A program made the position numbers and the translations under genes. A stretch of DNA of 64,000 nt from Bradyrhizobium icense (GTDB lineage Bacteria > Pseudomonadota > Alphaproteobacteria > Rhizobiales > Xanthobacteraceae): contig NZ_CP016428.1 in NCBI RefSeq assembly GCF_001693385.1, forward strand, positions 7,068,001 through 7,132,000. The letters run 5' to 3'. Within the stretch, counting starts at the first letter, position 1. Every line of letters begins with the position of its first letter. This document shows, one piece after another, positions 40,081-44,538 of this stretch. The notes beneath the pieces were generated by a model. It ran no database searches. It was not told the DNA's origin and worked only from the letters and a program-made list of their open reading frames with translations.

Positions 40081-43041
40081 ATGGCGAAGAAACCGGACGC
40101 TCCCAAAAAATCAGGCAAAACCCCGAGATCCAAGGCGCACCGGCCCGAAGTGCAACCAATCGGACCGGCGCTGGCGGAACTGCTCAATCCCGCCATCAAC
40201 CGCGGCGATGCCGGCACGGGTTCAGGCACTGGCCTGCAGCCTCCGCCCGACAATTCCTGGGATCGCCGCGCCGGCGGCGAGGCGGCGGCGCATCGCGCTC
40301 GCGCTTCGACAAAGGGGACGGGCGATGACCTCGCAACACGCGATGCCGGACGCGGCCTCGACGAAGCCCCCCAAGCCAACTACGGCACCGCGGCCACCAT
40401 CCCCACGCTCGACCCCGAACTCGCGCGCCAACTCGGCCTGCCGACCGCCGAAGACGACGAGGATGCCCTCGCTCGCCCGCCGCGCAACAAGATGGAAGCG
40501 CTCGGCGTCAAAGCGACTGCCGATGCGCTGGAAAGCTTGATCCGCGACGGCCGCCCCGAATTTCGCGGCGATAACGGCCAGCTCAAAGTCTGGACGCCGC
40601 ACCGGCCGCCGCGCCCGGAGAAATCCGAAGGCGGCGTGCGCTTCGAGATCAAGTCCGAATACCAGCCGAAGGGCGACCAGCCGACCGCGATCGCCGAACT
40701 GGTCGAAGGCGTCAACCGCAACGACCGCACCCAGGTGCTGCTCGGCGTCACCGGCTCCGGAAAAACCTACACCATGGCCAAGGTGATCGAGGCGACGCAG
40801 CGCCCGGCCCTGATCCTTGCGCCGAACAAGACGCTCGCCGCCCAGCTCTATGGCGAGTTCAAGAACTTCTTCCCCGACAATGCGGTGGAGTATTTCGTCT
40901 CCTACTACGACTACTACCAGCCTGAGGCCTACGTCCCGCGCACCGACACCTACATCGAAAAGGATTCTTCCATCAACGAGCAGATCGACCGCATGCGCCA
41001 CTCGGCGACGCGCGCGCTCTTGGAGCGCGACGACGTCATCATCGTGGCCTCCGTGTCCTGCATCTACGGTATCGGTTCGGTCGAGACCTACACCGCGATG
41101 ACCTTTGCGCTGAAGAAGGGCGAACGCATCGACCAGCGGCAGTTGATCGCCGACCTCGTGGCGCTGCAGTACAAGCGCACGCAGGCCGATTTCACCCGCG
41201 GCACGTTTCGCGTCCGCGGCGACGTCATCGACATTTTCCCGGCGCACTATGAGGACCGCGCCTGGCGCGTGAACCTGTTCGGCGACACCGTGGAAAACAT
41301 CGAGGAGTTCGATCCGCTCACCGGCCACAAGCAGGACGATCTCGAATTCATCAAGATCTACGCCAACTCGCACTATGTGACGCCGCGGCCGACGCTGGTG
41401 CAGGCGATCAAGTCGATCAAGTCCGAGCTGAAGCTGCGGCTCGACGAACTCAACAACCAGGGCCGCCTGTTGGAAGCGCAGCGGCTGGAGCAGCGCACCA
41501 CCTTCGACCTCGAAATGATGGAGGCGACGGGAAGCTGCGCCGGCATCGAAAACTATTCGCGCTACCTCACCGGACGCCGCCCCGGCGAGCCGCCGCCGAC
41601 GCTGTTCGAATACGTGCCCGACAACGCGCTTGTTTTCGCCGACGAAAGCCACGTCACCGTGCCGCAGATCGGCGGCATGTTCCGCGGCGATTTTCGGCGC
41701 AAGGCGACCTTGGCCGAGTATGGCTTCCGCCTGCCCTCCTGCATGGACAACCGCCCGCTGCGGTTCGAGGAGTGGGACATGATGCGCCCGCAATCGGTCG
41801 CGGTGTCGGCGACGCCCGGCGGCTGGGAGCTGAACGAAAGCGGCGGTGTGTTCGTCGAGCAGGTGATCCGCCCGACCGGCCTGATCGATCCGCCGGTCCA
41901 CATTCGCCCCGCGCGCACCCAGGTCGACGATCTCGTAGGCGAGGTCCGCGCGACCGCTGCCGCGGGCTATCGCTCGCTGATCACGGTACTGACGAAGCGC
42001 ATGGCGGAAGACCTCACCGAATATTTGCACGAGCAGGGCATTCGCGTCCGCTACATGCACTCGGATATCGACACCATCGAACGCATCGAGATCATCCGGG
42101 ATCTTCGCCTCGGCGCGTTCGACGCGCTGGTCGGCATCAACCTCTTGCGCGAGGGCCTCGACATTCCCGAATGCGCGCTGGTCGCGATCCTCGACGCCGA
42201 CAAGGAAGGCTTTCTGCGCAGCGAGACCTCGCTGATCCAGACCATCGGCCGCGCCGCGCGCAACGTCGACGGCAAGGTGATCCTCTACGCCGACCAGATG
42301 ACCGGCTCGATGGAGCGCGCGATTGCGGAGACCAACCGCCGCCGCGAAAAGCAGGTCGAATACAACACGGCCAACGGCATCACGCCGGAGAGCGTGAAGA
42401 AATCGATCGGCGACATCCTCAACTCCGTCTACGAGCGCGACCACGTGCTGGTCGAGATCGGCGACGGCGGCATGGCCGACGACGTCATCTCGATCGGCCA
42501 CAATTTCGAGGCCGTGCTCAACGACCTCGAAACAAGGATGCGCGAAGCCGCCGCCGATCTGAACTTCGAGGAAGCCGCCAGACTCCGCGACGAAGTCAAA
42601 CGCCTCCGCGCCACGGAGATGGCGGTGGTCGATGATCCCACCGCCAAACAACGCGCCGTGCAAGGCAAGGCCGGCGCGTATGCCGGCACCAAGAAATACG
42701 GCGAGGCGGCCAACTTGCCGACATCCGCGATGAAGAAGCGCCGCGCCTCTTCACCCTCCCCTGGAGGGGGAGGGTCGACCGCCGCAGGCGGTCGGGGCGG
42801 GGTGAGCCGCAGCGGCGGTCCCTCCACCTCCAAAGTCCACAAACCCCACCTCGACGAAATGCACGGCCCCGAATCCCTGCCCTACCGCCCCGGCGGCGCC
42901 AAACCGCGCAAGCCCGCGATCGGCAGCGGCAGCAAAATCTTCCAGCCGACCGACTCGCGACAATCAGGGCCGGAGTTCGGGCCGGCGCCGCGATCGAGCG
43001 GCGGCGCGCCGGGGCATCGGGGCGGGTGGAAGAAGAGGTAG
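40081..43041 (+). CDS. uvrB: excinuclease ABC subunit B
   Basis: The damage-verifying helicase of nucleotide excision repair, which loads DNA from UvrA and recruits UvrC. At 986 residues it is ~300 longer than E. coli UvrB: ~190 extra at the N-terminus (disordered, Pro/Ala/Lys-rich) and ~130 at the C-terminus. Walker [11 protein letters not shown] lies near residue 222, the beta-hairpin [20 protein letters not shown] follows, [19 protein letters not shown] is near 519, then [20 protein letters not shown] and [20 protein letters not shown]. The UVR domain ([20 protein letters not shown]) is near residue 820. Residues ~890-909 are encoded by an intergenic palindromic repeat. Confidence 0.96.
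42750..42805. repeat. half copy of the palindromic element, inside uvrB
   Basis: TTCACCCTCCCCTGGAGGGG, GAGGGTCGACCGCCGCAGGC, then GGTCGGGGCGGGGTGAG. It matches the left arm of the elements at 3193 and 53563. In the uvrB frame it reads [20 protein letters not shown] with no stop. Confidence 0.85.
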
Positions 43042-43083
43042 GATTCGCCGTGCCAGCTCTTGGATGAGCCTGCTGCAACTAAC

Positions 43084-43141
43084 CGTCATTGCGAGCCTAG
43101 CGAAGCGATCCAGCTTCTTGGCTCTGGATTGCTTCGTCGCG
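43084..43141. repeat. half copy of the CGTCATTGCGAG repeat fused to the DpnI relic
   Basis: CGTCATTGCGAGCCTAGCGA and AGCGATCCAGCTTC...GGATTGCTTCGTCGC. The usual right end (CGCTCGCAATGACG) is missing; instead the sequence runs within ~30 bases into the truncated endonuclease gene. Confidence 0.75.
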
Positions 43142-43170
43142 GAGCCAGCCATCGGGCGCGCATTCGCGCC

Positions 43171-43767
43171 TGCAAAGAGGAATTCGAACTCAAGAGCCAG
43201 AAAGGCAGGTTCGGAACGCGAGTCGTCGACGGCGCGTTCAAGACCAAGTGCGAACGTCTTGCCGCCAGCAATAATCCGAATCTGCTTCTGATGAATTACG
43301 ACCTCAAATCGCTTGCGGTCGTGAACCTGCTCATCGTGCCAAAGCACTTCTTCGTTCGTGAGATCATCGAGGAACGTAAGCCGTTGGCTTCCACCGCGCG
43401 ACGGGCCGGCTGGATCGGCTCCAACATCCTGCTCAGCCGAATTCCAGAGTCCGGAAAAATACACATCGTCCAGAACAGCGTCGTTCGCGCGAAAGAACTC
43501 GTTCTCGCCGATTGGCAGAAGACACTCTTCCTCAGAAATGAATCTCCGGAAACCCGCGGCTGGTTGCTGGACGTGATGAACTGCGTGGAATCGCTCGGCA
43601 AGCGAGACTTCACGCTTGACGAGGTCTACGCGTTCGAACGGCACCTCGGCGATCTCTATCCCGGCAACCAGAATGTCAGACCGAAGATTCGGCAACAGCT
43701 TCAATATTTGCGGGATCGCGGGTTTATTGAATTCGTTTCGCGCGGGAATTATCGTCTGCGGCAGTAG
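43171..43767 (+). pseudogene. DpnI-family methyl-directed restriction endonuclease, 5'-truncated
   Basis: DpnI cuts GATC only when the adenine is methylated. From residue ~59 of DpnI onward the match from memory is close: CKEEFELKSQKG, VDGAFKTKCERLAASNNPNL, KPLASTARRAGWIGSNILLS, LFLRNESPETRGWLLDVMNC and the C-terminal winged helix IRQQLQYLRDRGFIEFVSRG. The first ~58 residues, with the zinc knuckle and catalytic Asp53, are absent. Glu64 and Lys66 equivalents (ELK) remain, but the position of Asp53 is not acidic in the preceding readthrough. An ATG at 43060 would make a 235-residue chimera starting in repeat sequence. Probably catalytically dead; the DNA-binding winged helix is intact. Codon use is less GC-rich than neighbours, suggesting transfer. 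Confidence 0.85.
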
Positions 43768-43778
43768 GGAGGCTGGCC

Positions 43779-44054
43779 ATGGCGTGGCTTCTAAATCACT
43801 ACAAATGCGACCGTTGCAGACGCCGATGGGCTGATGAATGGTCCTGCATGTGCGACGACACCTGCCCGCATTGCGGCGCGCGAGATATGACGCCTTATGA
43901 AAGCGAGGAACTGACCACGCTGATTGAAGAAGAGGGCAAAGAGTTCGTCGTGTTGTGGTCGCCCGAAACGGCCGAGCACGACCCTGACTATCGTGAACTG
44001 GGCCGCTTTCCTACCCGTGAGAAGGCATTGGAGTTTCTGGCTGCCGACCAATGA
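43779..44054 (+). CDS. small zinc-finger protein
   Basis: A 91-residue protein. KCDRCRRRWADEWSCMCDDT and CPHCGARDMTP give three CxxC-type pairs, so one or two zinc sites, followed by an acidic region (EELTTLIEEEGKEFVVLW) and a short alpha/beta end (REKALEFLAADQ). It resembles rubredoxin-like small proteins of bradyrhizobia; role unknown. It starts 11 bases after the DpnI relic, but nothing else links them. Confidence 0.72.
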   Translation: MAWLLNHYKCDRCRRRWADEWSCMCDDTCPHCGARDMTPYESEELTTLIEEEGKEFVVLWSPETAEHDPDYRELGRFPTREKALEFLAADQ

Positions 44055-44060
44055 TGCTTT

Positions 44061-44159
44061 GTCATTCCGGGATGGTCCGAAGGACCAGACCCCAGATGCG
44101 CAACGCGCATCGGGGAATCTCGAGATTCCGGGTTCGAGCTTTGCTCGCCCCGGAATGAC
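44061..44159. repeat. CATTCCGGG palindromic element, copy 2
   Basis: GTCATTCCGGGATGGTCCGA at the left, CGCCCCGGAATGAC at the right; inside, CAGATGCGCAACGCGCATCG and GGAATCTCGAGATTCC are smaller palindromes. It fills the convergent gap between the zinc-finger gene and the membrane protein gene. Confidence 0.8.
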
Positions 44160-44169
44160 ACGCGGAAAC

Positions 44170-44538
44170 CTACCGCCCGCTCGCCACCGCCAGCACCGAC
44201 AGCATCATCACATTCGTCACCAGTTGCAGCGACACCGTCGGCTGCGCGCGCCATTGCGCGAGTTTGTCGGAAAACGACAGGCTGGCATCGAAGAACAGCG
44301 GCTCGTAGCTGTTCCTGAAAAACTTCGGAAATTTTGGCGCGAGCCAGGGCGTCAACAGGCCGTGGAAGATCGAGGCGGCGACTACGAACAGCACCGCGCC
44401 GCCGGCGATCGGATGATGCGAGAGCTTCAGCAGCAGCGCGGCGGCGGCGAAGGTCGGAAAGCCCTGGAAGATGGCGGTGAGCGCAAAGCCTTCGACGCGG
44501 TTCTGGAGGGATGATTTCGGGGCGGCGATGGCGATCAT
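44170..44538 (-). CDS. small membrane protein of unknown function
   Basis: A 122-residue protein with two clear helices (FALTAIFQGFPTFAAAALLL and HPIAGGAVLFVVAASIFHGL) and a third at the C-terminus (LQLVTNVMMLSVLAVASGR). A soluble loop of ~40 aromatic-rich residues (PKFPKFFRNSYEPLFFDASL) lies between. No family recognised. The start at 44538 is the only good ATG. Confidence 0.65.
   Translation of the reverse strand: MIAIAAPKSSLQNRVEGFALTAIFQGFPTFAAAALLLKLSHHPIAGGAVLFVVAASIFHGLLTPWLAPKFPKFFRNSYEPLFFDASLSFSDKLAQWRAQPTVSLQLVTNVMMLSVLAVASGR

What the first reader, a model, noticed from the sequence alone, without database searches (positions are those of the whole stretch)
43084..43767. Truncated DpnI-family (methyl-directed) restriction endonuclease fused to an intergenic repeat
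Seen: a 198-codon frame whose product matches DpnI from its ELK catalytic pair to its C-terminal winged helix, while the first ~58 residues (zinc knuckle, Asp53) are replaced by half of a CGTCATTGCGAG repeat. Known: DpnI cuts G-m6A-TC. Inference: a transferred methyl-directed defence gene was cut at a repeat, leaving a catalytically dead but possibly still methyl-DNA-binding protein. If the chimera from 43060 is expressed, it could be a reader of m6A DNA.
Basis: partly seen in the sequence, partly recalled or inferred. Interest (0 to 1): 0.72.

Follow-up and report, generated by a model that had tools for sequence, protein, structure and literature searches.

The report
Broken DpnI-type restriction gene, Bradyrhizobium
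A resident gene for a DpnI-like enzyme that cuts methylated DNA has lost its front end, start codon included, through a deletion that begins in a neighbouring repeat, so it is almost certainly a dead gene here, while most relatives that carry the gene keep it whole.

Summary
From 43171 the frame is a DpnI-family protein lacking its first 57 residues, and the DNA before it is a multicopy CGTC-tagged palindromic repeat (REP). Of 265 genomes of the genus, 39 carry dpnI, usually downstream of uvrB and always followed by a 91-aa zinc-ribbon gene; in 35 of 39 it is unbroken (254-255 aa), with the Asp and four Cys. Near relatives have a REP in the uvrB-dpnI spacer, so a deletion (distance 237 bp shorter than in the best relative) joined a resident REP to codon 58. 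It removed Asp53, three of four conserved Cys, the N-terminal DNA-binding helix, the start codon and, if the ancestor had it as L003 does, a promoter-like element. The remaining codons look constrained (27 synonymous, 5 replacement changes on this branch), which fits a recent deletion; a still-selected fragment is not excluded. Other genomes have damaged the same locus in other ways. Best reading: a young pseudogene of a resident methyl-directed restriction gene. The m6A-reader idea is possible but unlikely. The dpnI/zinc-ribbon pairing deserves more attention.

The parts
40081..43041 (+). uvrB (986 aa), upstream neighbour of dpnI in most genomes of the genus that carry dpnI
   Evidence: ORF; uvrB upstream of dpnI in related loci
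43084..43169 (+). 5' part of a CGTC-tagged REP dimer, cut short at its 3' end by the deletion
   Evidence: 40 own-genome matches (the scoring cap; 133 candidates), the better ones ending at query base 84-87; aligned copies continue as a second arm ending GCAATGACG; a REP in the uvrB-dpnI spacer of close relatives
43169..43170 (+). Deletion junction; base 43169 agrees with both the repeat and dpnI (1 bp of microhomology at most)
   Evidence: window compared with L002/L003 and with own-genome repeat copies
43171..43767 (+). dpnI remnant: codons 58-255 plus stop; keeps Cys59, Glu64, Lys66, Arg126, Arg135, Trp138 and the winged helix (DpnI numbering)
43060..43767 (+). Longest chimeric reading frame (TTG start, 235 aa), repeat plus dpnI remnant; probably not a real gene
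   Evidence: start-site check
43779..44054 (+). znr: 91-aa zinc-ribbon-like protein, intact, neighbour of dpnI in 39 of 39 genomes of the genus with dpnI; strong ribosome-binding site

Best explanation
A young pseudogene. The ancestor of this Bradyrhizobium carried a uvrB - REP - dpnI - znr arrangement, dpnI coding a full-length enzyme that would cut G-m6A-TC in incoming Dam-methylated DNA (activity inferred from the family). One deletion, with at most 1 bp of microhomology, ran from inside the REP to codon 58 of dpnI. It removed the rest of the REP, the spacer, the start codon and 57 codons, including the metal-bridging Asp, three of four conserved Cys (zinc ligands, recalled) and the N-terminal minor-groove helix, and probably the dpnI promoter. 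Shown: anatomy, junction, orthologous intact genes, a REP in the same spacer of near relatives. Inferred: that the product is not made or not active, that restriction is lost, and that the event is recent.
For: Full-length orthologues with znr following and uvrB upstream; 35 of 38 other dpnI copies in the genus are unbroken, 254-255 aa, all 35 with the Asp and four Cys. Relative L003 (lowest uvrB distance of the 22 compared): 96% protein identity over the shared part, intact 255 aa, REP in the same spacer; uvrB stop to codon 58 is 366 bp there, 129 bp here. A REP arm lies within 300 bp upstream of the dpnI start in 7 of 38 loci, among them five of the six nearest by uvrB. No second copy or displaced N-terminus in the own genome at E <= 0.001. 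Asp53 bridges both metals and D53A serves as the active-site control in PMC4117772 (passages and Results part 1). A promoter-like pair ending 5-8 nt before ATG is found in 26 of 38 loci, L003 included, and before no start codon in window 42900-43300. Independent damage in relatives: L092/L063, L100 and L028 have frameshifts or a stop; L101, L102 and L103 keep only a dpnI tail plus znr, or a znr fragment.
Against: The remnant frame has no stop and shows 27 synonymous to 5 replacement changes on its branch, not clearly different from its intact sisters (18:0 and 14:2); a gene neutral for the whole branch would show about 72-81 replacements. This forces a recent deletion (neutral for roughly a tenth of the branch at most) or some retained selection. 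The promoter-like pair is not found by the same pattern in 12 of 38 loci, among them L002 and L008, both near relatives. No strain of the same species was available to date the event; the assembly was not checked against reads.
Confidence: 0.88

Rival explanations
1. The truncated chimera is expressed and kept as a nuclease-dead reader of G-m6A-TC DNA through its winged helix.
For: Winged helix complete (PF17726 positions 1-69 of 70); the two positions mutated in PMC4117772 to weaken DNA binding (229, 231) are K and R as in DpnI, and R126, R135, W138 are kept; frame open and constrained. DpnI's two domains are separately specific for Gm6ATC (PMC4117772 abstract). The TTG at 43060 pairs with the anti-Shine-Dalgarno at -3.6, as well as nearly the best intact dpnI start.
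Against: Native start codon deleted and no promoter-like pair left (one search found no sigma-70-like site either). The other candidate starts score -0.9, against -10.8 for znr; the measure is a weak one, since intact dpnI starts span -4.5 to +2.0 and the uvrB ORF start scores +1.7. The catalytic domain lacks its N-terminal third and would probably misfold (judgement; no structure was predicted). No D12-type (Dam-like) methylase in the genome, so no obvious endogenous GATC mark. Constraint is equally explained by recency; all five replacement residues occur among the 43 aligned homologues.
Confidence: 0.04
2. The short form starts at an internal codon and is a normal, shorter functional DpnI variant.
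For: Open frame with high conservation; a few database proteins are 215-229 aa (P0038, P0073, P0082, P0107, P0118).
Against: 35 of the 39 copies in the genus read unbroken over 254-255 codons. Four of those five short database entries still contain PLADF with the Asp; the fifth, P0118, looks frameshifted in front.
Confidence: 0.02
3. Sequencing or assembly artefact: the real genome has an intact dpnI.
For: The junction lies in a multicopy repeat, a classic place for misassembly; high conservation of the rest.
Against: Single-contig 8.32-Mb genome; the missing codons are not found elsewhere in it; the join is of unique dpnI to one repeat copy with 1-bp overlap, not a collapse between two copies.
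Confidence: 0.05

Closest known systems
R.DpnI of Streptococcus pneumoniae (Pfam PF06044 + PF17726; PDB 4esj, 4kyw; source organism recalled)
   Same: Colinear from chain residue 61 to 255 (E 3e-56); ELK pair, R126, R135, W138 and the complete winged helix kept
   Different: No counterpart of residues 1-57: no N-terminal helix 16-31, Asn48 or Asp53, and only one of four conserved Cys; repeat-encoded residues in their place
Intact Bradyrhizobium DpnI-family proteins (e.g. L003, B. murdochi L033 = L002, P0002)
   Same: 97% (L002) and 96% (L003) identical over the shared part, same downstream znr, same uvrB neighbourhood for L003
   Different: They have the whole N-terminus and start codon; L003 also has the promoter-like pair, L002 does not by the pattern used
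CGTC-tagged REPs of Bradyrhizobium (PMC3733652, passages read)
   Same: CGTC terminus, palindromic, many copies; [quoted passage not shown]
   Different: Here one copy is cut short by the deletion; assignment to a numbered family was not tested
drg / NmeBII 'dam replacing gene' of Neisseria (PMC4269198, start of abstract and passages)
   Same: Named like the Pfam family (Dam-replacing); nuclease with GmeATC specificity
   Different: [quoted passage not shown] here the gene lies between uvrB and znr

Membership tests
DpnI family (by descent) | Significant match to PF06044 and PF17726 in order | tested here: met
   153.6 bits against cut-off 26.7, and 104.9 against 23
DpnI family (by descent) | Orthologous position with full-length relatives | tested here: met
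   uvrB - dpnI - znr order in relatives
Active DpnI-type PD-(D/E)XK nuclease | Asp53, Glu64, Lys66 present | tested here: not met
   Glu and Lys kept, Asp deleted; Asp present in all 35 unbroken relatives; roles from PMC4117772
Active DpnI-type PD-(D/E)XK nuclease | Four-Cys zinc knuckle | tested here: not met
   Cys 33, 36, 55, 58 in all 35 unbroken relatives; only Cys58 remains here. That these Cys bind zinc is recalled, no call shows it
Active DpnI-type PD-(D/E)XK nuclease | N-terminal helix contacting the minor groove (residues 16-31) | tested here: not met
   Deleted; role from PMC4117772 Results part 1
m6A-DNA reader via DpnI winged helix | Complete winged-helix domain with DNA-contacting residues | tested here: met
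   PF17726 positions 1-69 of 70; positions 229 and 231 kept
m6A-DNA reader via DpnI winged helix | Protein is made | not testable with these tools
   Only start-signal scans available: no promoter-like pair; ribosome sites weak but within the range of intact dpnI
m6A-DNA reader via DpnI winged helix | Binds G-m6A-TC | not testable with these tools
   Needs a binding assay
CGTC-tagged REP | CGTC end, palindromic body, many copies in the genome | tested here: met

The most novel reading that the evidence does not exclude
A REP-mediated deletion turned a methyl-directed restriction enzyme into a nuclease-dead m6A-GATC binding protein that is still under selection (27 synonymous to 5 replacement changes), perhaps acting with the conserved zinc-ribbon partner Znr.
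Probability: 0.03. Interest if true: 0.7.

Novelty: new member of a known kind. Interest (0 to 1): 0.2.

Why it matters
By itself little: it is one more decaying restriction gene, though its junction with a REP is unusually clear and shows a REP at the edge of the loss of a defence gene. The surroundings are more useful. A DpnI-family gene is a resident near uvrB in part of Bradyrhizobium (39 of 265 genomes), has been damaged several times independently, and in this genus is followed by a small zinc-ribbon gene of unknown role in 39 of 39 cases. Strains that keep an intact copy may reject Dam-methylated DNA from E. coli, a practical and testable point for rhizobial genetics (inference).

Tried and rejected
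Recent horizontal transfer of dpnI: rejected as the main story because of position and tracking with uvrB. Some discordance remains: dpnI of L031/L032 is closer to the window's than their uvrB predicts, and in B. murdochi (L091) and L100 dpnI lies about 2.6 kb from uvrB, so local recombination or insertion is likely.

Dam methylase as the opposite of DpnI: in the 265 genus genomes a long match to the D12 methylase family (at least 187 of 253 positions, counted by me) occurs in 2 of 39 with dpnI and 20 of 226 without (Fisher p 0.75). No support either way, and the family is broader than Dam.

Sigma-70 promoter and terminator scan of 42900-44200: nothing found. NCBIfam gave no match for the remnant. 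Znr had no match over a curated cut-off in Pfam or NCBIfam and none in PADLOC.

Literature: full-text searches of the held library for Bradyrhizobium + DpnI + Dam-methylated (0 papers), dam-replacing + Bradyrhizobium (1 paper, where Bradyrhizobium is incidental), and DpnI + zinc ribbon + restriction + homologs + Rhizobiales (0). Papers: PMC4117772 read as passages, outline with abstract, Results part 1 of 2 and section 26; PMC4269198, PMC3733652 and PMC5082802 as passages only, plus the start of each abstract in the listings. The 2012 DpnI structure paper was not read.

Structure prediction of the truncated protein never ran: the machine was busy at all seven attempts, so whether the remnant folds is judgement, not a result.

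One search was faulty (an alignment file overwrote window, L002 and L003 in the script) and was replaced; nothing is taken from it.

Full report
WHAT IS THERE. The frame 43060-43767 is open. Its product matches PF06044 (E 5.8e-45, profile 58-182 of 183) and PF17726 (E 2.5e-30) with no match before residue 37, the DpnI structure 4esj from chain residue 61 to 255 (E 3e-56), and PADLOC's methyl-directed REase model from position 58. A search of 5.8 billion proteins found 7228 relatives; none of the 120 listed covers more than 85% of the query, so none of those extends into the repeat-coded part. The window lies in an 8.32-Mb single-contig genome. Of 38 loci from named genomes, 20 are titled Bradyrhizobium, including the nearest named one, B. 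murdochi, so I take the genus to be Bradyrhizobium.

THE JUNCTION. The DNA at 43084-43169 is a REP: 40 own-genome matches were scored (the cap; 133 candidates), the better ones aligned up to query base 84-87. Aligned copies read ATTCGCGCGACCCGTTGGCTC... and end in GCAATGACG, while the window leaves them after ATTCGCGC and continues as dpnI. The relatives L002 and L003 share dpnI sequence with the window from 43169 onward. Base 43169 fits both sides, so there is at most 1 bp of microhomology.

THE ANCESTRAL STATE. In L003, nearest by uvrB of the 22 loci compared (as L090), uvrB, a REP, a 255-aa dpnI and znr follow each other. A REP is seen in the same spacer in the five further loci printed, L035, L036, L037, L039 and L041. 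Over all 38 other dpnI loci of the genus, a REP arm is found within 300 bp upstream of the start in 7, among them five of the six nearest by uvrB; the sixth is B. murdochi, where dpnI is displaced. The distance from the uvrB stop to codon 58 is 366 bp in L003 and 129 bp in the window, a difference of 237 bp. So the repeat did not jump into the gene: a deletion starting in a resident REP ate into it (inference from these relatives).

DISTRIBUTION. Of 265 genomes of the genus, 39 have a dpnI match at E <= 1e-20 (an earlier draw of 195 gave 34 such). I inspected the DNA of all 39. Thirty-five read unbroken over 254-255 codons, all with the Asp and Cys 33, 36, 55 and 58; one of these (L018) reads TCG where the others have ATG. 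The broken four are the window, L092 (= L063, B. australiense; frameshifts), L100 (split near codon 198) and L028 (a TGA). znr follows dpnI in 39 of 39, shortened in L008 and split between frames in L093. uvrB is seen upstream in 37 of 39, in two of them only in the longer stretches L091 and L044; for L007 and L093 only 1.5 kb was at hand and it is not seen. Three further genomes keep only remnants: the last 22 codons of dpnI plus znr (L101), or the 3' part of znr directly after uvrB (L102, L103). Two database proteins suggest more decay: P0127 joins a dpnI piece to znr, and P0123 has, by eye, a repeat-coded stretch in front of znr. Among the 38 loci of the named-genome scan, znr lies next to dpnI in 31 (partial in L039 and L060) and is not found in 7 (L059, L061, L062, L065-L068).

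INHERITANCE. Over 23 loci with both genes, uvrB and dpnI distances correlate at r 0.63, 0 of 999 permutations reaching that. The gene is thus mostly resident in the lineages that have it, with some discordance; 226 of 265 genomes of the genus lack it, and I did not test whether that is loss or absence.

WHAT IS LOST. In DpnI, Asp53 bridges both metal ions, Glu64 and Lys66 complete the site, helix 16-31 contacts the minor groove and Asn48 contacts guanine (PMC4117772). Of these only Glu64 and Lys66 remain. Also kept are R126, L129, R135, W138 and, in the winged helix, positions 229 and 231.

EXPRESSION SIGNALS. The 38 other dpnI loci lack a strong Shine-Dalgarno site (duplex energies from -4.5 to +2.0), but 26 of 38, L003 among them, carry a promoter-like pair (.TRG.A, 16-19 nt, TAnnnT) ending 5-8 nt before ATG; 500 shuffles gave at most 1, and the same pattern 10, 20 or 30 nt further upstream gave 0. 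Twelve lack it by this pattern, including L002 and L008. The pattern was written after looking at these sequences and they are related, so the count is not an independent test. It suggests a leaderless message beginning at or near the ATG (inference). The window has no such pair before a start codon in 42900-43300. Its candidate starts score -3.6 (TTG 43060), -0.9 (TTG 43129) and -0.9 (ATG 43291), against -10.8 for znr and +1.7 for the uvrB ORF start, so ribosome pairing alone does not rule the chimera out.

SELECTION. Against a majority sequence of the window, L002 and L003, the window branch has 27 synonymous and 5 replacement changes in 198 codons; L002 has 18 and 0, L003 14 and 2. Under neutrality for the whole branch about 72-81 replacements would be expected; the data fit neutrality for about a tenth of the branch (P of 5 or fewer 0.08-0.14) and reject 0.2 or more (P < 0.002). 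All five replacement residues occur among the 43 aligned homologues. A recent deletion is the simplest reading; retained function of the fragment is the alternative.

METHYLATION CONTEXT. No D12-type (Dam-like) methylase was found in the own genome; one N6/N4 methylase of the PF01555 type was, probably CcrM (recalled, not tested). This fits a host without GATC methylation, in which an intact DpnI would be tolerated, but the genus-wide comparison gave no association.

VERDICT. An ordinary gene-decay event in a known family: a young pseudogene.

Noticed in passing
43779-44054: znr, a 91-aa zinc-ribbon-like gene 11 bp after the dpnI stop, follows dpnI in 39 of 39 genus genomes with dpnI (shortened or split in two) and in 31 of 38 named loci incl. 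Mesorhizobium, Rhizobium and Pseudorhodoplanes; no match over a curated cut-off in Pfam or NCBIfam and none in PADLOC. Possible partner, regulator or inhibitor of DpnI.
   Followed up: partly
upstream of dpnI in L002-L030, L092-L100: Promoter-like pair ending 5-8 nt before the ATG in 26 of 38 loci and no strong Shine-Dalgarno site: dpnI may be translated from a leaderless mRNA.
   Followed up: partly
42752-42822: A multicopy repeat (34 matches in the own genome) lies in frame inside the uvrB C-terminal coding region; the same stretch is in the L003 uvrB frame.
   Followed up: partly
44114-44131: GGAATCTCGAGATTCCGG, the core of Br-REP1 of B. japonicum (consensus in PMC5082802, passage), just after znr.
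   Followed up: no
L101, L102, L103, L093, L104, P0123, P0127: Repeated erosion of the dpnI-znr locus by deletions and frameshifts in other genomes.
   Followed up: partly
L034 9984-10253: A second znr copy about 4 kb downstream of the dpnI-znr pair in a Rhodopseudomonas MAG; L064 also has two.
   Followed up: no
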